Positions 35,056 through 63,525 of a stretch of 64,000 bases of DNA are shown piece after piece; the stretch's first letter is position 1, and each line of letters begins with the position of its first letter. The translations under genes and the position numbers were made by a program. The DNA is from Phycomyces blakesleeanus NRRL 1555(-) (lineage: Eukaryota > Mucoromycota > Mucoromycetes > Mucorales > Phycomycetaceae). The notes beneath the pieces are model-generated. The model searched no databases. It saw only the letters and a list, made by a program, of their open reading frames with translations, and was not told where the DNA came from. The stretch is from NCBI RefSeq assembly GCF_001638985.1, contig NW_017265134.1, positions 3,702,653-3,766,652 on the forward strand, in the 5' to 3' direction.

Positions 35056-36225
35056 ATGGACACACCTGCTTCTTGCTACACACCAACCCTCAATGGTAGC
35101 CTCTCTAATATCAATATATCTCTTGCCGTCGAAAAAGTCTTACGAAGCAGTAATCTTGATCCACATTTTTGGGACTTTCCTGTCATTGAGAATTCTTATT
35201 CTCAGCTATCATCTTTTGGCTTTCTACCTCCTGATAATTTGCAACCACACTATGCCTCCAAGCCACCCAACACTGTACCTTTTTATCTCTTTGAAGACTT
35301 TTTCTCTCTAATTGGTGCCTCTGATGTACAAAACTCTACATACATCAAAGACCTTGCTATGGAATATAGCCCTGGTACATATCCCAAACCCCAAATCCCT
35401 CAGGTTGGCCCTTTTTCTAGTCCCTCCTTATTATTTGCGGCTCAAACACTTTCGAGTAACATACCTACGACCTTTCCTTCCTGGACTACACCTTTAATCG
35501 TCCCAGGTCAAGAGAAAAATATGAATGCTCCTCTTTTAAACACAAACCCATGTTCCTTTCTCCCAAGTTCTGGCCTAGTTTCTTATTCACACAAGTCACC
35601 TATGATTTCAGAAGACTTTGACGAAAACAATACTACTCATAATATTAGTTTTAAGAATAATAAAAAATATGAGAATTATAATAAGCGCAATAAGATCACT
35701 AAGAACAATAAGCATAATGACTATAGTAAGTACATAAACACACATATACACTTTTTGTTTTTCTTTATTTTGCTTTATTATGTTCTATTTGGCTTGGTCC
35801 CTACCTTTGTTTATGTTCAAAGGTTAATTGATGCAGATTTATATGTATCTATTGATTTATTTTAACTAAAATTACAACAACTTTGATATTGATACTGATA
35901 CTGATACTAACTATGCTTTCAATTATTTATAGATAAAAGCCATCACAATAGTCACTATGGCACCACTCAGACTACTGATTTCCACAATCCAAATGCTCGC
36001 AAGTCTAAAGAAAGGGTCTATTATTCAAAACTTCATATGTGTGGAATATGCGACTACTGGAGCGACCACAAAAGCAATAGGGATAGACACTTTGTAAAGC
36101 ACTACCCCGATCACAAGAAACACAAATGCCCTGACTGCAAGAGTGACTTTGACAGCAAATACAATCTCAAAAGGCACATCCTTGGTAGCAAAAGATGTAA
36201 AGCCAGTCAAGCACAACAGCAATAG
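35056..36225 (+). CDS. Two-finger C2H2 family protein, member 1
   Basis: Exon 1 35056-35725, phase-1 GT-AG intron, exon 2 35933-36225; 320 aa. The N-terminus (MDTPASCYTPTLNGSLSN) matches member 2 (MDTPASC). About 200 residues rich in Pro, Ser, Phe and Asn follow, with no known domain, including APLLNTNPCSFLPSS. Exon 1 ends in an Asn/Lys-rich stretch. Exon 2 has the basic NPNARKSK box, then finger 1 CGICDYWSDHKSNRDRHFVKH (C-x2-C-x12-H-x3-H). Finger 2 is CPDCKSDFDSKYNLKRHILG with a final Cys (C-x2-C-x12-H-x6-C). Two adjacent fingers with basic flanks suggest nuclear DNA or RNA binding. Targets are unknown. Confidence 0.85.
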
Positions 36226-36890
36226 TTACCAGCAGAAAAAGAATCTTCCCACTCTTCCTTTATTCCTCTCTCCACTCCTTTTTATATGTGTGTCTTTCTT
36301 CCAAATCCATTAATTTATAAACTTTGGTTGTTTAGTATAAACCCTCATTTTCCTTTTATATATATGTATTTGTGTATAAATTCATGCTTATAAAGATTTC
36401 AACTTTTGAAAAGTTCTATTGACACGATATCCTTGGCTTTCAGCCACTCCAAAACTCACTTGATAATTATCTTATTCTCGCTCTTATAAATATATATGTA
36501 TGTACCTCTTCCAAGACTCGAAATCTAGATTTCTAGGCCTTTTTTCTTTCTTTCTTGATTTCTTTATTCACTGTCAATCCTGTATCTATCTCATATAAAT
36601 ATATCTTTGGTTTTGATATTTATTTCTGCCTGTAGGACTGTATTTCCATTTGCCCATTTTTAGTATTTTAAATTATGAGCCTTTAAGCTAATTACTAGTA
36701 TCTTACAATCCAAAATAAATGATTATAAAAAAAAACTAATATTTTTTTATACAAGACGTTTTACCTTCTGTAGTCTTCCGATTCGAATTTCTGTTTATAA
36801 GCAGCATTTTTTTCTGTAAAATTGCAGTACACTATAGTCAAATGCTAACAAGCGACAGGCTTGAGATAAACTATCATACATTCATTATAA
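36226..36890. other. Downstream region of member 1
   Basis: T-rich 3' UTR and spacer; no gene seen. Confidence 0.4.
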
Positions 36891-37309
36891 GAGCATCTCC
36901 AGCAGTATCAAAACCCAAATACTAAATATCCAAATTAGGAAACTGGTGTTTAGATTTTCCAAAAAAACGTCTCCAGCAGTTTCTAAACAAAAATCTAAAT
37001 ATCCAAATCCGGAATTTAGATCTAAACTTTTTGAATCAAAATCTAAACTTCTGTAGGTTTTCTCAGAATTTGTTTAGATTCTATCATTTACTAAATTTCC
37101 ATTTTTTATATTGTGACTTTGAATTTTCGATTTTAAATCTCAGCCTTTAGGAAAAACCTCACCAAAATCATCAGCTCTTTAGAATCTGTGTTAAGAAACT
37201 GCTGGAGTGACCTTGATATTCTTCATACTAAATTGCTTTATTTGTACTAGCGCGGGAAATGCTAATTTGGATATTTAGTATTTGGGTTTAGATACTGCTG
37301 GAGATGCTC
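36891..37309. mobile_element. MITE with GAGCATCTCCAGCAG TIRs and TAA target duplication
   Basis: The 419-bp element has ~49-bp inverted ends with one mismatch: GAGCATCTCCAGCAGTATC, then AAACCCAAATACTAAATATC and CAAATTAG. TAA flanks it on both sides (36888-36890 and 37310-37312), consistent with the 3-bp TWA target of PIF/Harbinger elements. Internal copies of a shorter CTCCAGCAGTTTCTAAAC motif occur near 36971. No coding capacity. Confidence 0.85.
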
Positions 37310-37675
37310 TAAGCAGTAAAGAAATGAATTTATGGTCAACCATAACAATTAGGTGAATAGCGGTAGCAAAAAAAAAAGCGTATCATTAATACTAATTTAT
37401 ATTTGAGCACACACACACATATATATATATGTATGTGTGTGTGTGTGTGTAAGTACGCTTGAAAAAAATCTAAAAGATGTAAATGGCAAGAAGCTTGCGA
37501 ATAAAGTAAATTGAGATGTATAGGCAATTATTAACGTGTAAAATTCGGTTGGGTCGGTATGTTCCTATTGGCTATACCGTGTAAGGAAAAAGCGGAGAAA
37601 TAAAGAAAAAGAAAGGAGTGTGTTGACATATTCCTCAAACTCGGTACCCAATCACTAACCGGTATATTTTTCGAT

Positions 37676-37714
<39 letters not shown>

Positions 37715-39190
37715 AGAGTAAAGCGTTGTATAAAATCAAATTGGTCTGTGCAAGATTGAAACTACTTTAAAACTTTAGTAATAGGCCTTCCTCTATTATC
37801 CGAAGGAGCGAAGACTCTTTCTGGTCCCTCCTCTCTTTCCCTTTTTCTTTTGTTTAATACCAATAGTCACGAAATACATGATAAAGTGTAATAGATAGAA
37901 ATCCTCTCAATTTATTGTGAAATTCGTTGCTAAATAACAAAATTATGATAGCATGGCAAGAGTCCCCGCGAACTAACGGATAATCATAAAATAGAGATGG
38001 ATATGGAGGTATATAGAAAGATGGTTAATACTTGTACAAGGCGTTGGCAATCATCATGCATTAAATCATTTTGATATTATTGACTCTGTTTTTTCTATAT
38101 TATATTTTATTTCATTTCATTTTCTTTTATCTTTTTTGTAATTATTGGGGTAGAGGAATGTTTTTTTTAAAAAAAAAATCCCCCCCCCCCCCAGTAACTA
38201 TGGCAGCAACTACTATATATTTATTTTCAATTAGTGTTACTTTACATACGTAAACCAGCAAAGTTTGTTTTTTTTTCTTTTATGATTTATGATTTTTAAT
38301 GGCTAATTTATTTTGTGTAAAATATAGTGTCTGTGTGTGTTTTGCTTGTTTGTATGTATAATTGGGATACTGGGAATGACTTTGGACTAACCAAAATATA
38401 AATCGAAGGCTCAGTGTGAATTCAAGATGACAAAAATTGTCAAATATAATAATACTAATAAAAAGAACAAGACAGAAGATGATATTATATACGTATCTAA
38501 AGTGTGCGAAAGTACAAATTTCTAGAACGCTATGGAATGAGCAAAGGGTGGGGGAGTAACACTAACAAAATAAAAGGCACCAATCAAATTCCTGTCCATG
38601 CAGTGGATTTTAAAGCAGACATAAAGAGAAGACGAAGAAAAATCTGTTCTTTTGACTCAACTGGATACAAACAGGTAATTAAGGTAAATAAAGGGCTGCA
38701 ATTATAAGCATAATGGGGTCAAATTAAGAAATGAAGAAGTAGTAACAGAGAAATAGTAAGAGAGAGTAAGAGAGAGTAAGAGAGAGAGAGAAAGAGAGAG
38801 AGATCTTGTGATGTAGGCTGCTGAGCCATATCTTGTATGCTATAAGAAAATGGAGATGGCTTGGAACAGAATACCAAATAAACTGAACACAAATGGCTAT
38901 TCTGGTGGTTGTAAATAGACCAATAAGATTAAATGAATAAGTATATATATGGTAGTCATTGAGAAGCTAAACAGATATATATTTATTCAAGGTAAGACGT
39001 ATCTAAAGTAATTGGTTTATAAATGTCCAAAAGATCCATTCCATATTATGAGCCGTCTATCAAATCCCATTTTTTTATTATAATGACTTTCTCTCTCTGG
39101 TAACGTATCAATTTCTAGAAGAATGATATATTACCACAAATTTGTACCTAAACAATATGAGGCGGGAAATACACACAGTTACGGTTGATT
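37310..39190. other. Gene-poor AT-rich DNA with homopolymers
   Basis: No credible gene. It contains a (TG/CA)n microsatellite (37410-37450), an 11-T/29-G run at 37675-37714, an A/C run ending in 14 C at about 38180-38193, and an (AG)n tract at 38755-38803. A 67-codon frame at 38504-38707 has no recognisable family. Confidence 0.5.
37686..37714 (+). repeat. Poly-G tract of 29 bases
   Basis: Uninterrupted G run after a T run. It is exceptional in this AT-rich setting; its length may be imprecise in the assembly. Confidence 0.9.
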
Positions 39191-39396
39191 TACCTTGTTA
39201 TTTCAAATTAATATACTAAGCTTATGCTTATCAAAACAACAAGAATTCTTTTACTTTATTATCTATTTATTTTGTGAAGTTTTAAACAATTGAAATTTTC
39301 AATTCAATTTTATTTTATTCTCGAATGAGAAACAAAATAAAAATATCTTGAGCGTCAAGTATTCAATGCTTCATGCTAATTACAATAATTTTTTAC

Positions 39397-39427
<31 letters not shown>

Positions 39428-41609
39428 ATAAGGTTGAGGGTCCATACCTTTGAAAGGTAATTGATCCTCGGCTTATGATCCTCAACGTAATACAAGAATC
39501 ATATATATATATAGTAATAAAAATGCGAATTAAAGTAAGATAAAAAAAAAGAGATATATTCAAAGTACTTTATTTCAAGCAATTATTGTATTTTTATCCA
39601 ATACAATGCAATATATATTATTCATAGAGTTTAATGTTTCATAATGATTAGATATAATATACTGATTTTCAAAGGTTTATCTTTAAATATATATAAAAAA
39701 ATATTTCTAAACAAAAATTATGTATCAGTTTAGCATGTAAATGGTGGCATTATTTTCTTTTTCTTTTTCTTTTTCTTTAAAAAAAATCCTATTATAGAAA
39801 TAAAAGTAAAAGTGACAGAATATGTAGAAAACATAGGCTTATTAGGGAGGATTCTGATCATAAGGATTATGATTTTTCTGTTTGTACCCTACCTGGATCA
39901 CAGAACATCGTGAGATTAATCCTTTCTTTTTTACCAATTTTTGATTACCTGCTTAACTGATTGGTTGCATTATCAGTGAGACAAGACGTATTTGTATTCA
40001 GGATACTTGCTTCAATCAGTAAATAGCCGATGCCCGTTTTTAACTTTTTTTTTATTTATTAATAAATAAAATAGAAAAACGTGGCATATAGGTGCAATCT
40101 ATTTAATTAAATAATGCCTAGATAAATACTTTTTTTTGTCATTGTACTATGGTGTATCAATACAGGCTTCAATGTTCTTGTGACAGTAAGTTCTAAAAAA
40201 TAGCTATTGTAAATTAATGGTATGAAATAAAGTCATACTGCTCTTTAATAGAATAAAATAGACTCATATTGTATCTCTTTTTATAATTCTGCAAATAATA
40301 AGGCTAAAATCAAGAAAGAAAGAAAAAAGAGTATACAATACTGGCTTTATTTGTAACAATGTATATTAATTAAGGTACACAGGTACACAGGTACACAGGT
40401 ACACACACACAATATATATATATATATCCCACGTGGCAACTACTACATATAAAAATCATCTTAAAATTAAGCTAAATAACGCCACCCCCTCCCCACATAA
40501 TTCCTTCTTTATATTATTATAAACGAATTTCTTTAGGTGTATATATTTTATGCTAATAGCTAAATTCCAGTAATCAAATTTTAGATAATAAAATTCCTTT
40601 TTATTCCATTTTATAGCTATATATTTCTCAAAATCGTCTTATTAAATAAATGCTTAGAGCTATATAACCTATACTTCTTTAAGAAGAAGAAGAAGATAAT
40701 GAAGAGGAGAATGAGGAGGAGAATGAGGAGCTTACTATCCATAATAAGATCCTTTTTTCTTGTTTGTAACTTCTTTGCTTTTGGTATTTTATAAACGTCA
40801 TTATGTTGTATAGCTTTGAACTTGATTTAGATAATAAATATATCTGGTATTATGAGTGAGATATTCATAATTCATAATGCACAAAATTTACCAAGTACCT
40901 ATCTTTGCTTCTTCCTGTTTCTTTTATTTTTACAACCCTAATCAGCCTCTACCTCTTAATTAATCTTGTATACATTCAATCGGCTGGTTCTTTCCGATTT
41001 TTTTTTTAAAAAAATATATCATTTTCTTGGCGAGTGTCAAGGGCATGGAAACAAAAAACCTTTGTACAAATTGTGTCATGCTGTTGATCTCATGGCCATA
41101 ACCAACTGGTGTAGCCATAGTATATATATATTACAGTGATAACGTCAAATCAATAATTAAAAGTAATTTGAAATATTTATATAATTACTATCGAATTCTA
41201 AACCACCCAGGATCTTCTTAGTATTTCTTATTATCAATATTGTATATATAAGATCCATATCATTTTAATTCTTTCATGCCCTTTTTCCTTTCCTTTTTCT
41301 TTTAAAGAATCATAACAAAAATGAAGAGGAGCAGGTGTTGCACGAAGGTCCTAATGTAATTTTGTGTCCGAATCATCATTTTATAATATTCACAACATAT
41401 TTTATGCTCCAAATATATTAATATAGTTTGTCAAACAGTTGGTCCATCAATCGTCTTATTTTTTTTTGATTATTTATTTATTTATTTGGCGCAAAATGTT
41501 TATAAAAGAGCAGCTTTCTCTATTATTTTTTCTTTATATCTTCTCTCTCTTTTTCCACACCCGTACACAACCTACACACATACACTCATATATACTACAC
41601 TACATAATC
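39191..41609. repeat. Segmental duplication copy A (upstream of member 2)
   Basis: Blocks in this interval recur in the same order at 45700-47376. Examples are CTTATGCTTATCAAAACAAC...AAATTTTCAATTC at about 39223-39306 (compare 45743-45826); CCACGTGGCA near 40428 (46024); TTGCTTTTGGT near 40777 (46378); and ACTATCGAATTCTAAACCAC at about 41187-41206 (46876-46895). No other gene seen here. It contains the TATAAAAG box of member 2 at 41501-41508. Confidence 0.7.
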
Positions 41610-42586
41610 ATGGATACACCTGCTTCTTGTAATACTTCAACTTTTTCTTGTTACACACCAGGTACCATCGAAACACCTCTTCCGCTTTCTCCTTCTGGCA
41701 ATACTTTTGGCCCTCAGGATGCTTATTTTGACCCTTTACCTTTCGAGAATTCACACCCATGTTTTATGGCCAGTCAATTCTACATCGGTCGGTTCAATCT
41801 CTTGGTGGACCCATTGATTCCAATGATTGACTCTTCAGGTCTGACTCCTGGTCCTGCTCAACCATCCGAATTATACTTTGAGCCTATTCCAAGCCAAAAC
41901 ACCGTGGATCTTCAAGAACTATCTTTGCGTGATCCAATTGAACCGATCAGGGTTACAATTCCTACAGCTCCTGTATCAATTACCAGCTCATTCAACACCT
42001 GTCCGATCACTGTACCAAGCCAACAAGATAACTTGAGGTCCCCTCTTTTGTACAACACAGCTCATTGCTTATCCTCACTCTCAGCAGCTCAAATACAATT
42101 ACCACCAACAGAGCCAGAGCCAAAATTACAATTGTCTCCCTTTGATCCCGATGCGAGTTCTTCTTGCCCACAGACCTTAAATACCCCGGAGATTTCTGGC
42201 CAAACTCTTGATGGTAAACATCTATTTTATATATACATATACAATATGAAAGGCGGATTTAAAGCTTAATAGACATAACACATATTAATCAACTTTTTTT
42301 TTCGAATTGGTCAGGTCTTGAAAAACGATTCATTTATTGTACTATCTCTAATACTTCTCGCTCATACAATCCGAATTCTCGCAAGGCCAAGGCCAGATAT
42401 TCTTATCGGAGAACCTATGACTGCGCAAAATGCAGCTACTGGACTAATCGGGAGTGCAACCTAACTAGACACTATCTAAAGCATCACACAGACTACAAGA
42501 GGCCAAGATGCTTAAAGTGTGAAAAGTATTTTGACAATGACTTCAATATCAAAAGACATGTACGCTTTAGTAGAACATGTAAATAG
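41610..42586 (+). CDS. Two-finger C2H2 family protein, member 2
   Basis: Exon 1 41610-42213, phase-1 intron, exon 2 42315-42586; 291 aa. I chose MDTPASCNTSTFSCYTPG as the start, not the upstream in-frame Met at 41439, because member 1 has MDTPASC and a TATA box lies 109 bp before it. The N-terminal half is Pro/Ser/Thr-rich with PLIPMIDSSGLTPG and SPLLYNTAHCLSSLS. Exon 2 carries NPNSRKAKARYSYRR, then finger 1 CAKCSYWTNRECNLTRHYLKH. Finger 2 is CLKCEKYFDNDFNIKRHVRF with a final Cys (C2H-x6-C). It ends Lys-stop directly after that Cys. Confidence 0.85.
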
Positions 42587-43898
42587 ATAGCCAACAGTCG
42601 AAACCCCCTTCCCTACACAATTAGATTCCTCCCTTCTCTTTACAGTTAGATCGTCTCCTCCCCTCCCCCTTCCATTTTTTTTTAAAAAAAAAAGAAAAAG
42701 TCCTGGCTTGCCTGTTATAGAATTCGAGTGTGCAACAAGACTTCTCTTGTCCTTTTATATTGTATATTGAAGTTTCAGCAAGTGTCGTGTCTTCTTTTTG
42801 GTGTATAAAATAAAGAGAACTTCAGCCAATAAACGCTCTTGCTATTATAGTCCTAAGAAATAATCTTTATTCTGGCACAAATTCACATCGTCTAACTCCC
42901 AACAAACTGCAATGAATGCTTAGAACATATTGCACCAAACACAATGCTAATGCCTTGTAAGCATTATAAGTGGATTAAAAGGAATAAAACAAAATCATAG
43001 CCGGTTGGCATGAGCGACGTAAGGAAGTTTTGATAGGTAGTTCGTTTATTTTTATCTCGTATTACCCATTCGATTAATATTAATGAGAATAAACAAAAAT
43101 TTAAAAAATAAAATAAAAACAGACTAGGTTAATCGGATTAGAGATGTAGTTATTTTTATTTATTTCTCTTAAGATCTGTGACTGTTTAATATTGTTGGCA
43201 GATTAACGTTCCTGATAAAATAGATCGGAAAATTGTACCTTTTGGACATCAATGGATTTAACACAAAGGTACTTATCCACTTTGTCTTTGAAGCTTTATT
43301 CTTTATGTTTAATATGGGTTGTATAGGTTTGTAGCTCCTGTAAGACCAAAGATTAAAGATATTTTCAAAATGCCAACAGCAGATCTATCTATCCAATGTT
43401 AGTTTGCAACAAATGTAATATCTTCTGGAATAGGGATGTCATGGTGGCAAAAAAAACGTGTTGTATGTTGTGCAGGTAATTTGAAATGGCAATGGTAAGC
43501 CAAAAACCTTCACTCCTCGACCAAGACCAAGCGCAGTAACACAAAGCGCCATAATGAACACGGTTGTTCCTCACTTCTGTGGGCAAACTTAAAAATGGTT
43601 ACAGGCAAAGAACACTCTAGTTATTTTTACCTTGTCTTGGCTAAATTCCCTTTCTATCCCAAATTTCATTCTTTTGTGTCTCAATTCTCTTTTTTTTTAT
43701 TTGTCCAAAAAAAAACACACACAAACCAACATCGTCTCAATCTCAAGTAAAAGCACCGCAGCTATGTAGCTAAATTCTCATCCTCATCTTTATGACAAAA
43801 CCGACAATCCTACGTGGAAGAGGATTCTATCTAACCGGACTAATTAATTCTGATTACCTGTCCAGATCGGTGCCTTTCTCTAACCCTTCAGGGCAAAA
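42587..43898. other. Downstream region, no gene identified
   Basis: AT-rich; short A/T tracts (for example at 42678-42696). I see no credible frame. Confidence 0.4.
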
Positions 43899-45690: not shown

Positions 45691-45699
45691 CACAGCTAT

Positions 45700-47268
45700 A
45701 TTTTATTTACTATGGGTTAGTTAAAGTCAATATAATAAAAATATGCTTATCCAAACAACAAACTTTCCTTTATTTTACTACCTATTTAGCTTCTAAAAAT
45801 TGAAACAATTGACATTTTCAATTCGACTATAGGTTATTTTATTTTTATCTTATCATTATTTCTATTAATTCAAAACTATAAGCTTTTATATATATAAGAT
45901 TTTGGGTCTGTGTCTTTGACCAATGAATTGGTCTTTGGCCATGTTTCTTATAATCCTAGAAACAATCTATATTTATATAACAATATTATATATAAATAAA
46001 AACAAGCTTACACCCCATATACTCCACGTGGCATGTAAGATGTACAGAAATGTTTGTGTCACTAAAGTTATAAGGAGTTCATATCGTACGCCATCGCTAA
46101 TCTTGTCTTTACGTTCCTATAAAAGAATATCTTGGTGCATAGATACTTTATACCATATGCTAAATGTCGGTAATGGGACTTTATAAAATTAATTTCATTT
46201 CTATTTTACTTTGCAACTTTAGATTTCTCGAATGTTTCTTATTAAATGATTTACTGTCATTATCAAAAAAAAGTTAAAGTTATGTATTTATAGATATATG
46301 ATACACCTCTTTAAGATGACAAGAAGAAACATACTATAAAAAAAAACAAGAGCTCTCCTTCTTTTTATGTAGATCATTTGCTTTTGGTGCCTTACAAACA
46401 TTATTACACTATTAGAAGTGAGTGGAAATATCGGTAGAGATTTTGGAAAATGTCTAGTGATTTCAAAGTCTTTATCAGAATTTTCATTCATATCCCATAG
46501 TAGCTGACTTGTATAATTATGGGTTTAAATATCTATAATTTTATATATAAAAAGACATTCTAGTGATGAGCAGGATTTCCACAATACATAGACATGCATA
46601 AGATTTATAAAGTCTATGAGTCATTGTGTATGTTTTCATACTTGACTCTTAAAGATTCAGTTTACCCCTGGCGTGCTCTATTAATTCCTTGAATATTGGC
46701 TTGGATTGCTTATTCCGTGTGCATATATTTTTTGTCGTTGGTAACTTGAAAGCAAAAATGCCTTTTTTGATACGCACTATGTCATTGGTTCCCACAAACT
46801 GGCTTGTATCCATGGATATTATACAATGATAATATCAAAGTAAAAATTAACAGTAATTTAACATCTACTTACAGCTACTATCGAATTGTAAACCACCGAG
46901 AATTTTCTTGTTAATCCTTATTAATATCAATATTGTTTATACAAAACCCATATCACTTTGTTACTTGCATGTTCTTTCTCCTTTTCTTTAATAATAAAAT
47001 ACATATAAAGAGGTTGTACAAATGGCTTTATCTAATATTATATTAGGTTGGTAAAGTAAAAAAGTTCATGATATTTTTATACTGGAGATACGTAACCAGG
47101 GTTTCATAAAATGTGTGCCTAATTCTAAATTTAACTTGATGTATTTTTACTTTTATCATTATTGATTTTGTGTGAAGCTATATAAGAAGCTCATTTTTGT
47201 ATTCTTTCTTTCTTTTGTATCTTTTCTCTTTTACACACCCATACACAACTATACACGCATACACATCT

Positions 47269-47301
<33 letters not shown>

Positions 47302-47376
47302 AGTATATATACTACAGATATATACGCACACACATATATATACATATAAAGATATTCTGCATTACACTACACGTTT
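45700..47376. repeat. Segmental duplication copy B (upstream of member 3)
   Basis: Diverged copy of blocks in 39191-41609, shorter by several hundred bases. A TATATAAG box occurs at 47179-47186, about 190 bp before the member 3 start. TA and CA microsatellites fill the leader. Confidence 0.7.
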
Positions 47377-48402
47377 ATGGACACACCAGATATTTTTTTT
47401 ACCTCTACTTCAACTGCTTATTTACATTCACCAACAACCATCGAGACCCCTTTATTGATTGATCCACAATTTATAGAAGCCACTCTTGATCTACCCTTTG
47501 AACATACCCCTTCTTTTGGTTTTCTTAGTTTTTCCCATGCTTATTTTGACCATTCATTTGTCTTTAATCCAGTTATCACCAACAATTTTGAATCCTTGGA
47601 TGGCCAACTGATTCCGATGACTAACCTCATAACTGGGGTTTCTTCTTCTTTTGAACCATCTGGCATATATTCTGACCTGGATTTAAACCAAAACAACATC
47701 AACCTTCAGGAGTTGGCTTACGGCAATCGTATTGAATCAATTGCGTCTACAAGCCCTTCGAATGCACTGTCTATGATCGGTCCACTAGACGAAAGTACAA
47801 TAATTGCACCAAACCAGAATAATGAAATGACATTCCCTGTTCCACACACCACACCAGATTTTGTACTCTCATCCTCGCCATCTCAAGTAAAATTGCCAGG
47901 CCCAGAACCAGCATTAACATGGTCACCTTGCAACTCCAATACAGGTCCTTCTTGTCCACGAATCTCAAATACCCCAAAAATTTCTAACCGGAATTTCGAT
48001 GGTAAATATGCACTTTATATATTTATCTATAGCGTGAATTTAAAGTCTAATAGACATAAAATACATTAAAAATATTTCCAGCTAAAAAAGACCTAAATTA
48101 TAATGATTTTTTTAGATATTGAAAAAAGAATAATTCATTATAGTCCCCCCAAAACCACTCCAAAAGGCAACCCAAATTCTCGCAAGGTTAAGAGTAAAAG
48201 CTCTTATAAAGTAACTTACGACTGCCCAGAATGCGAATACTGGAGTGATCGAGCGGGCAACATAAAAAGACACGTAGAAAATCATAAACCAAACCACAAA
48301 GGGCAAACATGCTCAAAATGCTCAAAATCTTTTAGCAGCGGCTTCAATCTCAAAAGGCATAGGACCTCTAGTAAAGCATGCAACTCTAATAACTTAAAAT
48401 AA
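47377..48402 (+). CDS. Two-finger C2H2 family protein, member 3
   Basis: Exon 1 47377-48001, phase-1 intron, exon 2 48116-48402; 303 aa. It starts MDTPDIFFTSTSTAYLHS, keeping MDTP of members 1 and 2. The exon 1 region GQLIPMTNLITGVSSSFEP and LQELAYGNRIESIASTS aligns with LIPMIDSSGL and LQELSLRDPIEPI of member 2, so the two are the closest pair. Exon 2: NPNSRKVKSKSSYK, finger 1 CPECEYWSDRAGNIKRHVEN then His, finger 2 CSKCSKSFSSGFNLKRHRTS then Cys after H-x6. The last residues are Asn-rich. Confidence 0.85.
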
Positions 48403-48567: not shown

Positions 48568-49909
48568 CAGTCTCATCAATTAAATGAAAGAAATTTTTAG
48601 CTTCCACCAAAGTGAAAAAATAACATCCTTAACTCTCTCTTCATTGTTTGTCTACTTTTACTTAAACCACTTTCAAAATCATTGGAATAAGAATATATAA
48701 CCTTTAAATATTAAGAAAAATAACTTTTATTGAAAGTTTAATATTTAGTAACATCACCACGGGCTTTCTTCATACGGACTATGCGAGTTGTCATAGACAT
48801 GCAGTAGGCCTTGCATACTGCAACCGGTATTTTCTTCCATTCTTCATGGATAACCTTGTCTAGCTCCTTAATAGTTCTTGGAGCTGGTACTCTTGCCCTT
48901 ACCATCCGACCCAAATGAGCCCTTAGGTTCTCAATAGGACTGAGATCTGGGCTATTTGGCGGCCATTTTATTATTGGTACATTATGGGTCTTTTTCCAGT
49001 TCTCAACAAGTTTTGACTTATGACAAGGAGCATTGTCTTCTTGGTAAATAAACTCCCCGTCATGTCTTTCACTTAGGCGACCATAAAATGGGAGCAACTT
49101 TCTTTCCAAAAGGTTTATATAGCCAAATTGGTCAAGGCTGTTAATAATCGTTTTTAGTGGGCCTACTCCTCCTGCCCACACACAGCCCCAAACCATCACC
49201 GAACCACCTCCAAACTGTACTCTAGGCATGATACAATCAGACTTGAACTTCTCTAGAGGAAAGCGCCAAATTCTAAGGTTTCCATCCTTTGGGAAAACCA
49301 TAAAGCGAGACTCATCGCTCCAAATCACACGATCCCATCTTTGATTGGTTTCTTTGCAACGTTTAGCAAACAACAATCGTTTCTTTTTATGTGTTCTGGA
49401 TAGCCTTGGCTTAAACACAGGATGGCAAGAAGACATTCCGATCTTACGAATAGCTTTGCGGATGGTATTCTTGCAAATGTACTTGCCAATCATGAGTCTC
49501 ATGGCGTTTGTGAGTTCTCCAAGTGTGGCATTACGATCTTTCTTCATTTCGTTTTTAAGCTGGCGTAAATCTCTCTCACCCAAAATTGATGGACGTCCTT
49601 GGCGTTTTTCTGTTAATGGCGTGCCATTCTGTTTCCATCTTTGAACTGTGCTATGTACAGTTGTCATGGGTATGCCTGTCTTCTCCGAAATGGCAGTCAA
49701 TGAAATATTATGGAGAGCACCACCGATAATAAGTCCTTTTTCATAGTCTGAAAGCTCTTTTCGTTTCTTAGGAATACTTTTATTGATTTGCTGAGACATT
49801 GTGAGATTTGAATGAGAAGAGTTTTTAAAAAAAGCACAACAACTTTGCATTAAAGATATTCTATTTAGTTGAGTTTAAACTTTTTTCTTTCATTTATTGT
49901 ATGGGTCTG
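48568..49909 (-). mobile_element. Tc1/mariner element 1, apparently intact
   Basis: About 1342 bp bounded by TA target dinucleotides (48566-48567 and 49910-49911). Inverted ends share CAGACCC/CAGTCTC-type termini followed by AATAAATGAAAGAAA or ATTAAATGAAAGAAA. It encodes a full-length transposase on the minus strand and lies directly downstream of zinc-finger member 3. Confidence 0.8.
48738..49799 (-). CDS. Tc1-like transposase, DD34E
   Basis: 353 aa from MSQQINKSIPKKRKELSDYE; an in-frame Met 17 codons upstream is less likely because it lacks homology. N-terminal helix-turn-helix: NISLTAISEKTGIPMTTVHS then TVQRWKQNG, plus a second DNA-binding region with GRPSILGERDLRQL. The catalytic core has IWSDESRFMVF (first Asp), YQEDNAPCHKSK (second Asp) and SPDLSPIENLRAHLG (Glu). 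The spacing between the last two is 34 residues. No internal stop or frameshift, so it may be active. Confidence 0.93.
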   Translation of the reverse strand: MSQQINKSIPKKRKELSDYEKGLIIGGALHNISLTAISEKTGIPMTTVHSTVQRWKQNGTPLTEKRQGRPSILGERDLRQLKNEMKKDRNATLGELTNAMRLMIGKYICKNTIRKAIRKIGMSSCHPVFKPRLSRTHKKKRLLFAKRCKETNQRWDRVIWSDESRFMVFPKDGNLRIWRFPLEKFKSDCIMPRVQFGGGSVMVWGCVWAGGVGPLKTIINSLDQFGYINLLERKLLPFYGRLSERHDGEFIYQEDNAPCHKSKLVENWKKTHNVPIIKWPPNSPDLSPIENLRAHLGRMVRARVPAPRTIKELDKVIHEEWKKIPVAVCKAYCMSMTTRIVRMKKARGDVTKY

Positions 49910-49911
49910 TA

Positions 49912-52892: not shown

Positions 52893-52918
52893 TAACCTAA
52901 TAACAATCCCGAATAGTT

Positions 52919-54107: not shown

Positions 54108-54538
54108 ATGACCAATCAAATGTGAGTTTGACCAACTATCTTATATATGCATTATTTTCTTTTTACTATAATGCTTCTTGCGAGCATAAAGACATAAACA
54201 TAAATACTCACAATATGTACATGTTTGTATATAGAAATGAACTCCCTGATAGATATCATTGGATCCCTTGGATTTACGAAACAAGAGCTTCAAATAACTT
54301 ATATACGGGTACTGTCGGTCAGGATATGCAGAATAGTAATGTCCGTACTACTATAAAGTACTCGTGTAAATCCTGCCAGTTCTGGTCCTATCGCAAATCA
54401 CATCTTACAAGGCACACTTTAACACATCAACTAAAATGCCCCCTTTGTGAGAAGAAGCTTTCAAACAGCTTTAATCTCGAAAGACATAAGAGAATTTTCC
54501 ATATGATCCCCACAAATAATGATGTACCCAACGTATGA
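54108..54538 (+). CDS. Two-finger C2H2 family protein, member 4 (short)
   Basis: Two models. A continuous frame from 54029 gives 169 aa with a hydrophobic N-terminus unlike the family. A spliced model (exon 54108-54121, donor GTGAGT, acceptor AG at 54251-54252, exon 54253-54538) gives about 99 aa starting MTNQ; I prefer it because a CT-rich leader and TATA-like box precede it as in other members. Fingers: CKSCQFWSYRKSHLTRHTLTH (C2H2) and CPLCEKKLSNSFNLERHKRI then FH (C-x2-C-x12-H-x4-H). The long Pro/Ser N-terminal region of members 1-3 is absent, so this is a truncated or divergent member. Confidence 0.6.
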
Positions 54539-56053: not shown

Positions 56054-56983
56054 CTATTGAGGTTGATCTATTTTACATTTCTTAGTACAAAGCATATGTC
56101 TTTTGAGATTGAATTTGGTACTAAAGCGATTTTTGCATACAGGACATTTGTGCTTTTTCCAATTGGGAAGGTGTTTCAAAAAGTGCCTATCTACGTTACT
56201 TTTACGATCACTCCAATAGCCGCATTCTTTACAAATATAACGCTTAGAATAAGTATTCATCTTTGTAGTCTTGCGAGAATTTGGATCATGTAATAAAGTA
56301 GGAGACGGAAAGACATTGTATTGTATAATTTGAAGCTTGACATCTACACAACATGGTATTTATATATATATGCATCGATTAAACTTGGAGTCCAAGAAAA
56401 GAAGAAGAAAAATATTGTATGTGTGCTTACCACTGGTATTTTGTTTCTGATTGCAATTATGATTGATGTTATTGTTGTTGCTTGACTGTAAGTTTTCTGG
56501 AATAATGGGCGGCTGTTGCGGATAAGGAATTGGATCAATTCTTGGAGGAAAGGAGTATGTTGTATTATACAATAAGGGTAATGTTATACTCTGCCCTTGA
56601 CTTGTGAAAAGCATAGGCAAATTCCAGAAAGGAGAGCTGGTAGAAAGACTGTATGGAGGAGCTTGAACTCCAATTGGTGCAATATGGCTGGACAAAGGTT
56701 CCACTTGAGTGTTGATGACATTTGTATCTGTGCTGAGATAGTGTCCCATGCTGAATGTGTTGTAGAGAGTAATTTGTTCAATGTCTTGTTCAATTGGAGT
56801 AGATTCACTTTCAAGCAGACCAAGGTATCCAGAATTGAGGTGGTTGAATGCGGAAGATGGCTGAGTGTTGTTAAGCGCCAAAGAGCCAATATTGTTGACA
56901 GTTTGGGGCTGCAGGGAAAAACTGCAGAAAGTATTATCTTCTAAGAAGGAGTAGGTGGCAGGAGATGCATTGATAGAAGACAT
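56054..56983 (-). CDS. Two-finger C2H2 family protein, member 5
   Basis: Minus strand: exon 1 56983-56431, phase-1 intron (87 nt), exon 2 56343-56054; 280 aa. It starts MSSINASPATYSFLEDNTFC. The N-terminal region is Pro/Ser/Gln-rich and ends in an Asn-rich stretch. It has ITLPLLYNTTYSFPP, equivalent to SPLLYNTAHCL of member 2. Exon 2: DPNSRKTTKMNTYSKR, then finger 1 CKECGYWSDRKSNVDRHFLKH. Finger 2 is CPVCKNRFSTKFNLKRHMLC with later Cys (H-x6-C). A TATAAA box lies at 57079-57074, 91 bp upstream. The only member on the minus strand. Confidence 0.85.
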
Positions 56984-57499
56984 TGCTTTACAGAGAGTTG
57001 TTGTATAGTAGGGCAGAATGTGGAAATATAATTATGCTTGTGAGAGCAAGAATAAAAATGAAAATGAAGCTTTTTTATACTTGCAGATATTCGAAAAATA
57101 CAGCTGAATAGGCTTCTCATGCCGTACTTGCATTATCTTTTTTGTCTGTCTCTGTGTGCGTTTGGTAACACTATCTAGATTTTCGTATTGTGAACACGAC
57201 CCAAATTCTAAATATTTTAGATCTTAAGTATCATATCTAATCAAATTTATGGGAGTATAAAAATGAAATTATGTATGAAGGGGTACAGGACAAGTCCACG
57301 TTATGGACATGTTGACGCCACTCTGTATTTATCTCCTATTTAAACATGGCCCGAATAATCTATTATTTCTTTTTGTATCAAAATTGTTCCTTTTATATCT
57401 TCATACTATAATATATTCTCGACTTTTGTGAAAGTCAAAAAAAAAGTTAAAAAAAAAGGTCAAAAAAAAAAGGTCGAAAAAAAGGTCGAAAAAAAAATT
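56984..57499. other. Promoter and upstream of member 5
   Basis: Contains the TATA box (57074-57079). The stretch 57430-57495 is a string of A-tracts separated by GTC, GTT or GGTCG. Confidence 0.4.
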
Positions 57500-57640
57500 G
57501 TTTGTATGGAGCTGTGACAGGCTCAGATTTATTAAAGTTCTCTGAATGAGTAAGGCAAAAGAGAAAATTACAACATTTGTTTTGAGGGTTTATGGGGGTT
57601 ATTTGATGTTTTTGGCTTTTTGGTTTTTGACTTGTTTTTG
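57500..57640 (+). repeat. REP2, copy 2
   Basis: Same block order as 50728-50900 (TTTGTATGGAGCTGTGACAG, CTCAGATTTATTAAAG, GCAAAAGAGAAAATTA, GATGTTTTTGGCTTTTTGG). It runs into a GC-richer frame at 57690-57960, suggesting that both belong to one larger element. Confidence 0.65.
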
Positions 57641-57669
57641 TGTGATTTAAACTTTTTTTTTGTTAAAAT

Positions 57670-58063
57670 GTTAATGTGGTGTTATGCGAGGGAAGAGTCA
57701 GCGGAGTCAAGCTCGAGCTTTGAGCAGAGGCGGGAGATTGATTTCCTAGCAGTGGCAAGAACCAAGGAAGGTAAAAAAGGAGCAGAATTAAAGTGGAGTG
57801 CCCAATTGTGGTCCCAGATAGCAAGGATGGTCAGTCCGAAAACCGAGGCGGCTGGAATACTGGGGTTCAGCGTGGGAGGGAAGAGAAAGGATGTGAATGC
57901 CGAGGAAAGTGCAGAAGGTGGTGGGACTGTGCCGAAAAATTCTAACCAAATGCCTAGGTCGAAAAAAAAGTCAAGAAAAAAAAGAGATAGAAAAATAGAC
58001 CGCTTTTTTTTTTTTTTTTTTTTGATTTTTGTAGGGAGAAAAATAGACCGCAAAAAGAGATAG
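57670..58063 (+). CDS. GC-richer unknown frame next to REP2
   Basis: Frame with SAESSSSFEQRREIDFLA, VARTKEGKKGAELKWSAQLW and SPKTEAAGILGFSVGGKRKD, then a Lys/Arg tail and a T-homopolymer. Base composition of 57690-57950 is clearly higher in G+C than the surroundings, like the transposon-derived regions of this window. It may be part of a retroelement ORF; I recognise no domain. The tail at 57990-58080 repeats AAAAATAGACCGC three times. Confidence 0.35.
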
Positions 58064-58083
58064 AAAAATAGACCGCAAAAAGA

Positions 58084-58550
58084 AAAAAAAATAAGAATTT
58101 TTTTCCGAGATGTTATTGGTTCGATCTTGAGATGTTTTTCTTATTTTGGTTGTGCAAAAAGAAAAAGAAAGAAAATGTCAAACTATTATAAATATGTAAA
58201 TCGAGATCTTTATGTATTTGGATTTGTGGTTGGATCAGCAGCCGATTCAAGGGAACAGAGTCTAAAATACCATATATCATGATATTACACCTTTGTTTGA
58301 AGGATCAGCAGAATTTGTATCACAGTTCTTTCTATTTCCAGTATATCGATCTTATAAAAAAAAACAGAACAAAATCAGGATCCTAAAGGGGGCAATATAT
58401 ATATATTATATATTTAAAATAATAGACCTGCCTGTGCACTGTCTATACCACAATATGGCGCAAGATTCATTTTATTTTATTTTTAATTTCTGTTTCGATG
58501 TCTGTTTGGATAAAAGTAATAAAAGTCACACACACACACACATATATATA
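58084..58550. other. Intergenic before Tc1 element 2
   Basis: AT-rich; a (CA)n then (TA)n microsatellite abuts the transposon at 58528-58550. No credible gene. Confidence 0.4.
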
Positions 58551-59925
58551 CACTCGAGTGTAATAGGTCATTGGGCGGTCTTCTAATTTTCAAAATTATT
58601 TTTCAAGCATATTATGGACGATATTTTCTTTTCAATAATGTTGATAATAAAATGTGCTCAGAATAAAGCAAAACTTAGAGAAAACATAGTTTATTATATA
58701 TATATTTAAGAGAAAAGGTATGAGCTCTGGTAATGAGTTGTGTCACCACCTCTCTCGATTACTTCTTTAAGCCTATCTGGCATGCTGGCTACCAAAGTTT
58801 CCAGAACTTGAAGTAGTATCTCCAGCCATGCCTTGTGTATCACTGCTTCAAGTTCTTCTAAGCTCATTACTTTTTCTCTATCTTTACAAAGTTTCTTCGG
58901 AATATGTGCCCAAACATGCTAGATAGGATTAAGATCTGGGCTCTGGGCAGGCCAAAAATCAAAGCTATCTATTAGACACCTCTCTTTTTTATACCATGTG
59001 GCATAAGCGCCCGTGTGGCATGGTGCACCATCCTCTTGGAACAAAAACTGTTTGTTATTATTCCTGGACAGTTCCTCGTACCAGGGAAGAAAGTACTGAG
59101 CCAAACAGTCGATGTACTTGTCTTGATCGATGTTTCCTTTCAATGTTACCAAGGGGCCAAGACCCCCACCCCAGAAACAACCCCAAATCATGACGGAACC
59201 CTTACCAAACTTGTATGTTTGGACAATATGGTTCTTGTCAAACCTCTCGCCAGTCTTTCTGATGACTCTGACTCTTCCATCATTGCCAACTACCATGAAT
59301 CTGGACTCGTCTGACCAGACAACTGACTTCCACTGCTCAACAGTCCAATTCACTTTGTCAAGGCACCATTTCAGCCTGTTTTCCTTCTGTTTCTCGGTCA
59401 ACCCTGGCTTGCGAGCTGCTGAGTGAGAACTAAAGCCAAGAAGTTCCATGTTCTTACGGAATGTAGTCATGCAGATGGAGATTCCCACATCGACTAATCT
59501 CTGATGCTGAGCCGCAATTGACACGAATGGCTCACTACGAAATGAGCGCACCATCGCAGATTGTGTTCTCTTTGTAACCTTTGGTTCTCTTCCTAGACGT
59601 GTCAAGGGCTTGGAAACACCTTTATCTCTGAAGGCTTTCACTACATTTCCAACAGTGCTCTTCGGAATGTCAAGGGCTTTAGAGATTTCTCCATATGTAG
59701 CGTCCTTCTCCCATTGACCTATAATTCGGCCCCTAATGAACGCATCTAACTCTTGTCTTTTGGGTTTTGTGATGCTAGAAGTTGGTGGAGTCATTTTGTG
59801 CTTTTGTTTTATTTGTTTAAGAGTTTTTAGTGGTTTTACAAAGAAAAGAATATTTTGATAATGCATAAAAAAAATCAAAAAATCAAAAAATCTGTGACCG
59901 TCTAATGACCTATTACACTCGAGTG
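58551..59925 (-). mobile_element. Tc1/mariner element 2
   Basis: 1375 bp with ~30-bp TIRs (CACTCGAGTGTAATAGGTCA then TTGGGCGGTC or TTAGACGGTC, two mismatches) and TA at each flank. The outermost ten bases, CACTCGAGTG, are themselves a perfect palindrome. It carries one transposase gene, disabled by a stop. Confidence 0.9.
58706..59794 (-). pseudogene. Tc1-like transposase with stop at the catalytic Glu codon
   Basis: Starts MTPPTSSITKPKRQELDA. It has an HTH with ATYGEISKALDIPKSTVG and a second DNA-binding part (GREPKVTKRTQSAMVRS). The core shows VVWSDESRFMVVG (first Asp) and LFQEDGAPCHTGAY (second Asp), then SPDLNPI followed by TAG. The relatives' motif is SPDLNPIE, so TAG replaces the third catalytic residue (GAG to TAG is one change). 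After it the same frame runs on without other breaks (HVWAHIPKKL...) to TAA at 58706. Spacing from the second Asp to the stop is 36 residues. This single stop suggests recent inactivation. Confidence 0.9.
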
Positions 59926-60144
59926 TATATATAGATATAGATATATTCTTTAATGTACCTTATTGGCTGAATAATACATATGCTTATATTATAATTCGTT
60001 AATTATTAAGCTCATCCTCTCCTTTTTTTTGTATTCTATGTAAAGCTTATAGTATTAGAAAGCGTTAAGAAAAGGGTGGGTCGGGGTGGGTTTTGTCAAG
60101 AATTTAAACAGTAAAAATCAGTATTTTATAAACCGAGAATAATA

Positions 60145-60532
60145 GGGGATTTCAACAACCATTCAAGCTTTTAAACTTAAGCTTTTGAGTTTAAATTTGA
60201 GAAATGATTGGCTGGAATCAATCTCTAACCATTAAGAAAGAAAGAAAGATTAAAACTTGAACAAAAATCGTTCAAGAGTTTTACACTTTTAATACATCCT
60301 TGTTTAAATTTGATTTATTTAATTTTTTGGAAATTTAATAAATCCTTGATAGAAATACTTTTGCTTCTTTCAATACTACTTTAAACTTATATAATATTAT
60401 TACAATGTCTAATATAACTGAAAGAAGCATCTAGGGTACTCAAAAACACTTGGCAACTATTGCGTATTATTGGTTACTGCTTTAAAACTCAAAGCTTAAG
60501 TTTAAAAGCTTAAAGGACTGTTGAAACCCCCC
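60145..60532. mobile_element. MITE with GGGG-TTTCAACA termini
   Basis: 388-bp element with ~50-bp inverted ends: GGGGATTTCAACAACC..., AAGCTTTTAAACTTAAGCTT and GAGTTTAAA on the left. The right end, read inverted, is GGGGGGTTTCAACAGTCC with the same AAGCTTTTAAACTTAAGCTT block. AATA flanks both sides (60141-60144 and 60533-60536). No frame inside. Superfamily not assigned. Confidence 0.75.
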
Positions 60533-62054
60533 AATATCAAAGAAAAAAAAACCGATATTAAAATTGAAACCAAGATTGAAATCGAATTTAGTGATTTTCT
60601 GTTTCTTATTTATGCATAATTTTTCTTGATATCAGAAAACTCGATTTTTCTTTTTATGTAAATTTATCTATATATGCATTGCTCTATATAATATAAGGTA
60701 ATTTGGCAGAATGAGTTTGACATTCAAAATGCATAGAGATGCATAAAATTTGTCAGGTCAATGTGAATCGCTTTTCCCTTGCCCTTGCCCTTGCCCTTGT
60801 CATCGTCTTCTCTTGCTTTTAGCATCAAAGATGTATTAGAATACAGTACAATTGACACATTAGAGGAGAAAAAATTGGTGTGTGACAAGATAAACAAATA
60901 TAAGAATGAACTCCTCCCCCCCATTTTTGTTTTAACTGCCAAATATAAAGGCACAAATGTAACATGGTTTGTTTAATATTAAAAATAGAAGCGGATCAAG
61001 GCATTGAGTCTTTAAACATAAAATAACAATTGATGATAATGATTATGGCTATATGTCTCTGTACTCACGGGAAAGATACGAAAAATACGGCTTTGAAATC
61101 CCAAGAGAAATAAAAAAAAACAGACCAAAAGCCAACTATTGTGCTTCATATAGATATTTTGTATCCCCTTTTTTATCTATCCGAATTCAGAAGTCTAAAT
61201 CGAGTGGAGTGCAACATGAAATAACTGCAACAGAATGAAACATAGAACTCTAAATAATATTACGTATTTAGTAATAAGGCTTAGAATAGCAAAGAGAAGA
61301 ATAGAAGAAAAAACTCTTTCGTAGAACGGAACCCATTCTCCCAATTATTCAACACCTTTTCTCTCTCTCTTATATATATATATATATATAAGGAGAGTGA
61401 TTTAATATAATAAGACCAAGAAAATATATTTGTCCTTTGCGAAAACGAGCTAAAAGAATTATTTTTTGGCATTATTTGTATAATTAAAGAGACAACACTG
61501 TAAAGAGCCATATGCAGAGACAAAATGAAAGTTTGTGAGTGCATAAGATTTTTTTCTTGCCTTTGTCTTCGGGTGAAATATCCCGTAATTCAATCGTTTT
61601 TTTGTCTTTTTTTAAACGACGCAACACAAGAATAAATATAGAAATAACTAAAAAAAAAAAGGAATAAAGGAAGAAAGAGCAAAATAGAGCAAAAGACGGA
61701 AAAAATAAAGAGTAGACAGATGCGAATACTCTGAGCATAAACGATAGAAATAATTCTTCATTATATAGAGAAGCTAGAAATAATTTCAAGAAAACACTAA
61801 CTTGACTACTACAACAATTATGTCTGCGTTGAAGTGCATTCCCAATTAATGCTTATTTATGATGAAATGTTTAGTAAAAAGGTTACATTGTTTATTCCTG
61901 TGGCGTCTGTAACACAATTTTATATATGGAATATTTTAAAGTCTGAATTTTCGTGTCCAAGCCATTGTAACCCAAGTCCATGCAAATACTTACAAAACAG
62001 ACACACTTACAATCCAAGATTATATATATATATATATATATACTAAAAAAAAGG
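60533..62054. other. Gene-poor region before member 6
   Basis: Contains four CCCTTG hexamers at about 60776-60800 and a (TA)n at 61371-61391. Frames at 60779-60976 and 61053-61238 look mildly coding (SIKDVLEYSTIDTLEEKKLV and MSLYSRERYEKYGFEIP) but I cannot join or assign them. Confidence 0.35.
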
Positions 62055-62060
62055 TATAAA
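62055..62060 (+). promoter_or_regulatory. TATA box, zinc-finger gene 6
   Basis: TATAAA is located 104 bp before the start codon at 62164. Confidence 0.55.
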
Positions 62061-62163
62061 TATCTTGGATATTTCCTTGATTCACTATAAACTCTCTTCT
62101 TTACCAAATACTGCATTTATTTTTCTATATTACACATACATATTCACTTTTTCATATTTTTAA

Positions 62164-63525
62164 ATGTCTTCAACTGAGGTACCTTGTCAGTGTACTAAAG
62201 ACACCCTAAAGTATGATTCAATGATCCTTAATGCATGGTATCAAGTCCATCTGGAGAACCTTTGTAACAACAACAATGACAATATATCAAGCATTACACA
62301 CATAAACATGGTAAGGTCTTTTATACTTCTTGTCTTTAACAAATTTACAGGAACATTTGTTCTTAAGCTGCCAAAAAACCCCAAAAAAAAACAACAACAA
62401 CAACTTGAATCGCGTCTGTCAATAGCAACCAAGTCTGCCAGCTATTGGTGTGGCTGGGGACCCTTTTCTAAGCACCCACTTTTCGGCATCTATCCAGAGC
62501 CTATTTCCATGTCGTAATTTGGAACCCTCAAATATCGGCGTAACTGAAGACCATCTTCTAAGAAGTAGCTTTTCTACATGCATGTGTGGGTTATCTCCTT
62601 TCATTACTACGAGACCATCAGTCTTGGCACCATCTCAGATTCCGTCCACAGTTTCCAGCCACACTTTTAATAATAGCTACAACCAACAACAACAACAACA
62701 ACAACAACAGTATCAACCGCAGCAACAGCAGAATCAATATCAAATCCAACAAAGCAAGAAAAATATTATTTCTGCTGATCAAGAAACTCTTGTTGCCTCG
62801 AGTCAGTCTCATACCCCGCATATGGTCCCGTACCAAAAGAGACACGTTAAACCAACCAAAAGAATGTCTTTACCCAATTTTCCTTTAGCCAGCGGTATAA
62901 GTAACATAGAACACCATTCCTGGAAATTTATCAATTTCAACCCTAGCACCTTCCACAAATGGGATCACAAAAGTAAGTTGTTTTCTTTTCCTCGTTTTTT
63001 GTTTTAACATTTAGCTTTTGGATTTAATTTTACCCAAAAGAAAACAAAAGTTAAATATAATTCATATATAAATTAACACCTTTTGTATTGTAATCTAATC
63101 TACAAATTACAACACTTATCAAAAAAGAAGATGTCAAGAATCAAGTGATACCATCACAACTGCCGCAGCAAAAGCATCAGTCATATCAACCATGGCAACC
63201 ACACCAGCCACACCAGCCATACCAACCATGGCAACCACGGCAACCGCACCAACCACAGGCTGATAGTCAGTCGTGTTTTGGGAATGAATATATAGTTGGA
63301 CTACAGGAAAGGGAAGTGAATGACCAACGAATTAGGTACAGATGTGAGGAGTGTTCGTTTGGTAGCTACTATAATAGGAATGTGAAAAGACACAAGGTTG
63401 TCCATATGCCATATCGTGAGAATAAGAAGTGTCCCGAGTGTAATAAGTCGCTTGCCAATCCCTACAACCTTCAAAGGCACATTTCTACTGTTCATATTGC
63501 TACAAAAAAACAAGCATCTTCTTGA
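62164..63525 (+). CDS. Two-finger C2H2 family protein, member 6
   Basis: Three exons: 62164-62310, 62426-62972 and 63128-63525; 363 aa, the longest member. Exon 1 (MSSTEVPCQCTKDTLKYDSM) joins in phase 0 after ATG|GTAAGG; the intron acceptor used is AATAG at 62421-62425 because the earlier TTTACAG leads to a stop. Exon 2 has a Gln run and Gln-rich stretch (residues about 135-165), and exon 3 a Gln/Pro/His repeat (QPWQPHQPHQPYQPWQPRQP). Fingers: CEECSFGSYYNRNVKRHKVVH (C2H2; the usual YW replaced) and CPECNKSLANPYNLQRHIST then VH (H-x4-H). The second intron is phase 1, as in members 1, 2, 3 and 5. Confidence 0.8.

What the first reader, a model, noticed from the sequence alone, without database searches (positions are those of the whole stretch)
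35056..63525. Cluster of six paralogous two-finger proteins with no recognised N-terminal domain
Members at 35056, 41610, 47377, 54108, 56983 (minus) and 62164 share the layout Pro/Ser-rich N-terminus, phase-1 intron, [ND]PN[SA]RK basic box, finger 1 (C-x2-C-x12-H-x3-H, mostly with YWS after the second Cys), a short linker and finger 2 at the C-terminus. Finger 2 has two forms: C2H with H-x6-C (members 1, 2, 3, 5) and H-x4-H (4, 6). A P-L-L-Y/N-T motif recurs in exon 1. The fingers and exon structure are kept while N-termini diverge, which suggests a rapidly evolving, perhaps lineage-specific regulator or effector family. Function is unknown.
Basis: partly seen in the sequence, partly recalled or inferred. 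Interest (0 to 1): 0.82.

Follow-up and report, generated by a model that had tools for sequence, protein, structure and literature searches.

The report
Fast-evolving fungal two-zinc-finger gene family
The fungus Phycomyces carries clusters of small, fast-changing genes for probable DNA-binding regulators whose two zinc fingers keep the same key base-reading residues while much of the rest changes.

Summary
The cluster is real. The window lies in Phycomyces blakesleeanus; my model of member 5 equals an annotated 280-aa protein. Members 1, 2, 3 and 5 share one layout with a phase-1 intron. Members 4 and 6 share the finger pair but not the basic box; by DNA, member 4 belongs with a copy 177 kb away. 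The family is larger: 47 finger-pair loci at E<=1e-5 in at least one of five own-genome searches, 15 of them in 467 kb (0.4 expected). Usual form: C-x2-C-x12-H-x3-H-x8-C-x2-C-x12-H near the C-terminus. Asn at helix +3 and Arg at +6 of both fingers hold in 30 of 34 pairs read and are the only invariant non-ligand columns of the 29 equal-length pairs. Fingers are not simply 'kept': in three paralogue groups exons differ more than introns and upstream DNA, though downstream DNA differs as much or more. Omega of one group's finger exon is 1.47, not significantly above 1. Best reading: a fast-turning-over, apparently Phycomyces-restricted family of two-finger transcription factors reading a GAn-GAn-like site. 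Function is untested.

The parts
35056..36225 (+). Member 1: exon 1 35056-35725, phase-1 intron, exon 2 35933-36225 with basic box and two fingers; 320 aa
41610..42586 (+). Member 2: exon 1 41610-42213, phase-1 intron, exon 2 42315-42586; 291 aa
47377..48402 (+). Member 3: exon 1 47377-48001, phase-1 intron, exon 2 48116-48402 (acceptor could also lie a little upstream); 303 aa
54108..54538 (+). Member 4: exon 1 54108-54121 (14 nt), phase-2 intron, exon 2 54253-54538; 99 aa; subfamily B by DNA, 3-residue linker
56054..56983 (-). Member 5: exon 1 56983-56431, phase-1 intron, exon 2 56343-56054; 280 aa, identical to annotated protein P0001
62164..63525 (+). Member 6: finger exon 63128-63525; upstream frame ending at 62972 joined by a phase-1 intron; first exon from 62164 unverified
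41110..41609 (+). Upstream DNA of member 2, 293/393 aligned sites identical to 46877-47376 upstream of member 3

Best explanation
The genes encode a lineage-specific family of two-finger C2H2 transcription factors. The basic C-terminal finger exon places two helices in the DNA major groove. With Asn at +3 and Arg at +6 in both fingers, and Arg commonest at -1 of finger 1, the C2H2 code (recalled) predicts a short purine-rich site of the form 5'-GAn(n)GAG-3', finger 1 on the 3' triplet. The acidic, Pro/Ser/Thr-rich, presumably disordered exon-1 product is the regulatory, probably activating part. Copies arise by DNA-level segmental and tandem duplication (introns and upstream DNA come along) and then diverge fast in their exons while ligands and the four base-reading residues stay fixed; paralogues so keep one core address and differ in fine specificity, partners or expression. 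Shown: gene structures, homology, frozen residues, clustering, exon-against-intron differences. Inferred: DNA binding, the site, activation, nuclear location, and selection as the cause.
For: Fingers match C2H2 profiles: members 4, 5, 6 over a Pfam cut-off; solved DNA-binding fingers (Aart, CTCF) at E about 1e-22 with a profile of the six; helices and strands of two finger units in the model. N+3/R+6 are the only invariant non-ligand columns in 29 equal-length pairs, permutation over columns p 2e-5; all four residues in 30 of 34 pairs read. Exon 1 net charge -3 to -16, exon 2 +11 to +16 in members 1, 2, 3, 5. Phase-1 intron before the finger exon in group A, in the one group B protein (P0054) and the three group C proteins (P0036, P0048, P0046) that could be placed fully. 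15 of 47 loci in 467 kb. Three relatives carry the source name C2H2-type zinc finger transcription factor (P0036, P0046, P0054), a label and not a test.
Against: No expression, localisation or binding data. The 8-residue linker is not the canonical TGEKP type (recalled), and member 1 has Arg where finger 1 usually has a hydrophobic core residue. Members 1-3 stay below all Pfam cut-offs. Fold search has no match at E<=0.001, best 0.042; the model is middling (mean pLDDT 68.7, 6 rows). 4 of 34 pairs break the N/R rule, member 4 among them. Asn at +3 is also seen in all 3 other Phycomyces fingers that my control caught, though Arg at +6 in none.
Confidence: 0.62

Rival explanations
1. Relaxed birth-and-death: the copies are redundant regulators born by duplication and decaying, exons near omega 1 because most copies matter little, introns and upstream DNA looking conserved through gene conversion or a patchy history. 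(It can hold together with the DNA-binding reading; the two odds are not exclusive.)
For: Omega of the finger exon is not significantly above 1 (lnL -801.31 free, -802.45 at omega 1 with matched kappa) and that of the N-terminal part is 0.98. 5 of 47 loci have stops inside the match, C1:4095k lost a finger-1 Cys, member 4 is short. Downstream DNA differs as much as or more than exons in all three groups. Exon dS (0.15-0.41) also exceeds intron divergence (0.06-0.17, uncorrected) in group C, which amino-acid selection alone does not explain.
Against: Ligands and N+3/R+6 stay frozen in most copies; all four distinct group C copies examined keep open five-exon frames.
Confidence: 0.42
2. The fingers bind RNA or protein rather than DNA.
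For: Only two fingers and a non-canonical linker; some C2H2 fingers do so (recalled).
Against: The frozen columns are just the base-contact positions +3 and +6 of both helices.
Confidence: 0.12
3. The finger genes are parts of transposable elements.
For: Tc1-type transposase frames lie between members 3 and 4 and between 5 and 6; the family is repeated and clustered.
Against: No transposase domain in the six members; copies keep introns and share upstream DNA.
Confidence: 0.05

Closest known systems
C2H2 zinc finger transcription factors (Pfam PF00096 / PF13909)
   Same: Ligand spacing, finger fold prediction, helix contact positions
   Different: Two fingers at the C-terminus, usually H-x8-C linker (29 of 34 pairs), last ligand often Cys, +3/+6 fixed as Asn/Arg in both fingers
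Tramtrack two-finger DNA-binding domain (PDB 2drp)
   Same: Two fingers on DNA; top Foldseek row (E 0.042, 34% identity) and a sequence match at E 1e-5
   Different: Fold match not significant; Tramtrack is an insect BTB protein (recalled) and no BTB domain was found here
CTCF fingers
   Same: CTCF reads C-x2-C-S-Y-x3-R-R-S-N-L-D-R-H where member 5 has C-x2-C-G-Y-x3-R-K-S-N-V-D-R-H
   Different: Many-fingered animal protein; likeness of one finger motif only
KRAB-ZNF-type expansions of vertebrates
   Same: Clustered duplicated C2H2 genes (starts of abstracts)
   Different: There finger number and contact residues diversify (recalled); here two fingers and fixed +3/+6 contacts, no KRAB-like domain
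Snake venom gene families with accelerated evolution
   Same: Duplicated, clustered genes with KA/KS above 1 (PMC6062510, passages); introns more conserved than exons (recalled; the 1993 and 1995 papers seen only as references there)
   Different: Secreted toxins, unrelated proteins; only the pattern of change is compared, and omega here is not significantly above 1

Membership tests
C2H2 zinc finger proteins | Cys2-His2 (or Cys2-His-Cys) ligands with x12 between second Cys and first His in each finger | tested here: met
   All six members and 34 pairs (there the pattern was itself the selection rule)
C2H2 zinc finger proteins | Score over a curated Pfam cut-off | tested here: inconclusive
   Members 4, 5, 6 over, members 1, 2, 3 under all; members 4 and 6 were scanned as partial frames
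C2H2 zinc finger proteins | Beta-beta-alpha fold | tested here: inconclusive
   Model of the member 5 finger exon has strands before helices 53-61 and 82-91, pLDDT about 78-86 there; no significant fold match
Sequence-specific transcription factors | Specific DNA binding, nuclear location, effect on transcription | not testable with these tools
   Only conservation of base-reading positions
KRAB-ZNF-type expansion | N-terminal KRAB, SCAN, BTB or ZAD domain | tested here: not met
   None at E<=1 in the six proteins given
Tramtrack-type | BTB domain with two fingers | tested here: not met
   No BTB domain
Transposase or mobile-element protein | Transposase or integrase domain in the protein | tested here: not met
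   the Tc1-type frames are separate
Transposase or mobile-element protein | Terminal repeats and target-site duplications around members | not tested
   Not searched

The most novel reading that the evidence does not exclude
The family is locked in a conflict or in rapid regulatory rewiring: positive selection changes the proteins throughout, fingers included, while the two bases that each finger reads through Asn+3 and Arg+6 are held fixed because the target site cannot change. It would be a fungal counterpart of clustered animal zinc-finger expansions with the opposite logic: fixed address, changing everything else.
Probability: 0.25. Interest if true: 0.72.

Novelty: new variant of a known kind. 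Interest (0 to 1): 0.46.

Why it matters
Expansions of C2H2 regulators are well described in animals; the fungal papers of which I saw passages note only that C2H2 factors outnumber zinc clusters in zygomycetes (PMC5415576) and in Lichtheimia (PMC4133162). A model fungus with tens of clustered, fast-changing two-finger regulators that keep one predicted core site would be a tractable case of how transcription-factor paralogues diverge when their base-reading residues do not. The predicted site and the exon-faster-than-intron pattern can both be tested directly.

Tried and rejected
Homologue searches with member 5 whole and with its finger region found only itself; the word filter makes this weak evidence of absence. 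The 21-row profile search listed 120 of 171 hits: 6 rows are Phycomyces (member 5 among them), no other fungus is named, other named rows are mostly animals, one bacterium and two rows whose organism name is cut off, and many rows are unnamed. Lineage restriction is likely, not proved.

Finger tree (33 rows): 1 of 30 inner branches well supported; the six window members need 3 changes (14 of 500 shuffles as low) and lie in one weakly supported half together with two presumed outgroup rows, so it neither shows one origin of the six nor orders the groups. Omega above 1 in the finger exon is not significant; the earlier comparison had also fixed kappa at 2.5 and is superseded. Exon-against-intron tests treat sites as independent, were chosen after seeing the data and use overlapping pairs; the finger exon of C47_8k against C1_4205k shows no excess (p 0.23). 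Downstream DNA goes against a simple reading: 3-26% different in C47_8k against C1_4102k and 8-38% against C1_4205k, 49/94 sites different for member 4 against C1:3934k, not alignable for members 2 and 3 (z 1.7). The control for N+3/R+6 in other Phycomyces fingers gave only 3 fingers, too few. The PF00096 search was too general to define the family. No paper on this family was in the listings of searches; the Phycomyces genome paper by DOI is not held. No RNA-seq is available here. Terminal repeats round members were not searched.

Errors corrected: one search ignored strand; one search used wrong exon ends, its translations are out of frame; the first member 4 join was out of frame. Several alignments with z near 0 are degenerate and not used.

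Full report
Where it is. The window is G000:C1:3702653-3766652 of a 53.5-Mb genome in 60 contigs. My spliced model of member 5 is identical over 280 aa to hypothetical protein J3Q64DRAFT_1866464 of Phycomyces blakesleeanus, order Mucorales.

The genes. Members 1, 2, 3 and 5 each have two exons and a phase-1 intron. Exon 1 has net charge -3 to -16 and 30-37% Pro/Ser/Thr; exon 2 is basic (net +11 to +16) and holds the [ND]PN[SA]RK box and two fingers that end the protein. Exon 1 homology is weak: in a whole-genome search member 5 finds member 1 at E=0.001 and member 2 at 0.28 and nothing else; members 2 and 3 share 71/193 and start alike. Member 4 is a 99-aa gene with a 14-nt first exon and a phase-2 intron; its closest relative by DNA is C1:3934k, 73% over 1001 bp including upstream DNA. 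Member 6 shares the finger pair; its upstream exons are uncertain. A finger tree pairs 4 with 6 without firm support.

The family. Five protein searches of the own genome give 47 distinct loci at E<=1e-5 in at least one; 15 lie in 467 kb of contig C1 (0.41 expected), 34 of 47 have another within 50 kb, 5 have stops inside the match. Some of the 47 may be ordinary C2H2 genes, and the tool calls its counts lower bounds, so the size is approximate. Besides group A (members 1, 2, 3, 5; C42 by likeness) I call group B the set of member 4, C34, C39 and C1:3.90-3.93 Mb, and group C the set C1:4.08-4.21 Mb, C47, C2:2866k, C19; the names are mine. Annotated proteins could be placed on group B (P0054) and group C copies (P0036, P0048, P0046): each has a phase-1 intron before the finger exon, which speaks for common descent. 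P0052 (C1:3934k) could be placed only in its last exon there.

What is fixed. From the fetched loci 34 distinct finger pairs were read; 29 have the same length, with linker H-x8-C. In these 29 Asn at helix +3 and Arg at +6 of both fingers are invariant and no other non-ligand column is (permutation over columns p 2e-5). Helix numbering is recalled. The five others: C31:99k keeps all four residues; member 4 has His and C31:79k Ser at finger-1 +3; C10:133k and C4:2071k, which look like ordinary factors, differ at two positions each. So 30 of 34 keep all four. Copies that the pattern cannot catch (C34:7.8k and C39:49k with a stop, C1:4095k with a lost Cys, the C13 stretch) and loci not fetched are outside these counts. 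By the C2H2 code (recalled) +6 Arg reads the 5' G and +3 Asn the middle A of a triplet, hence GAn-GAn, with Arg at -1 of finger 1 in 17 of 29 favouring GAG for finger 1. The longer linker may change the spacing.

Structure. AlphaFold2 on six window rows gives two finger units with pLDDT about 78-86 and a poor rest (mean 68.7). Foldseek's best row is the two-finger peptide 2drp, E 0.042, nothing at E<=0.001. By sequence profile 120 distinct solved sequences match, led by Aart and CTCF. This shows C2H2 membership, not closer kinship.

What changes. In group C four distinct copies have open five-exon frames (in C1:4102k the last acceptor is not AG at the aligned place). Nei-Gojobori dN/dS: finger exon 0.45, 1.47, 1.20, 1.05, 1.20, 1.31 in the six pairs, N-terminal exons 0.53, 0.72, 0.65, 1.08, 0.67, 0.70. 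A codon model gives omega 1.47 and 0.98; against omega 1 with matched kappa the log-likelihood falls by 1.14 and 0.004, neither significant. Introns differ less than exons: C47_8k against C1_4102k, exons 92/564, introns plus 700 bp upstream 59/1028; C47_8k against C1_4205k, exons 90/564, introns 34/354 (p 0.007), exon 3 28/129 against 3/163 for its two flanking introns, but the finger exon 30/233 without excess (p 0.23). Member 4 against C1:3934k: fingers 59/189, all upstream plus first exon and most of the intron 135/624 (p 0.008). Members 2 against 3: exons 274/840, upstream plus intron 119/473 (p 0.005). Three groups point the same way, but downstream DNA differs as much as or more than the exons in each, and exon dS also exceeds intron divergence. 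So amino-acid selection cannot be the whole story; gene conversion, constraint on introns and upstream DNA, or multiple hits stay open.

How it most likely works. A nuclear two-finger regulator: basic finger exon on a short GA-rich site, acidic N-terminus as activation or partner surface, many paralogues sharing the core address and differing elsewhere. DNA binding is inferred from the frozen contacts; the rest follows from it by inference. Relaxed birth-and-death of redundant copies fits most of the same data and can hold at the same time.

Comparison. It belongs to the C2H2 superfamily. It has no KRAB, SCAN, BTB or ZAD domain. It resembles vertebrate zinc-finger clusters in layout only. Fast change of duplicated clustered genes resembles venom families (PMC6062510, passages; the intron part is recalled). 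I found no paper on this family in searches of an open-licence library; I saw listings, and passages of PMC5415576, PMC6062510, PMC10386755 and PMC4133162.

Noticed in passing
L022/L023 and L030/L031 (C47 about 7-20 kb); L033/L034; L036/L037; L014/L015: Family genes sit in near-identical inverted pairs: 100% over 3210 bp and 99.9% over 2392 bp on C47, 99.7% at C1:2631k/2663k, 96.7% at C1:4081k/4102k; 99.1% between C34 and C39. Real palindromes or assembly artefacts.
   Followed up: partly
window 48738-49874 (-) and 58919-59959 (-): Tc1-type transposase frames between members 3 and 4 and between members 5 and 6.
   Followed up: partly
window 316-705 (-) and 14363-14752 (-): The same 129-aa frame appears twice with identical translation, a sign of a repeat spaced about 14 kb.
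   Followed up: no
window 32566-33741 (-), 4671-5045 (-): Reverse transcriptase fragments; the first is below the Pfam cut-off.
   Followed up: no
window 20844-23442 (+): Two long frames of coiled-coil look, the second with a weak Fez1 match below cut-off.
   Followed up: no
window 30396-30740 (-): Frame with a DUF383 domain, E 2.8e-22.
   Followed up: no
C1:3902612, C1:3907311, C1:3923198: Copies like subfamily B with stops inside the match; the first and third lie in opposite orientation about 20 kb apart.
   Followed up: no
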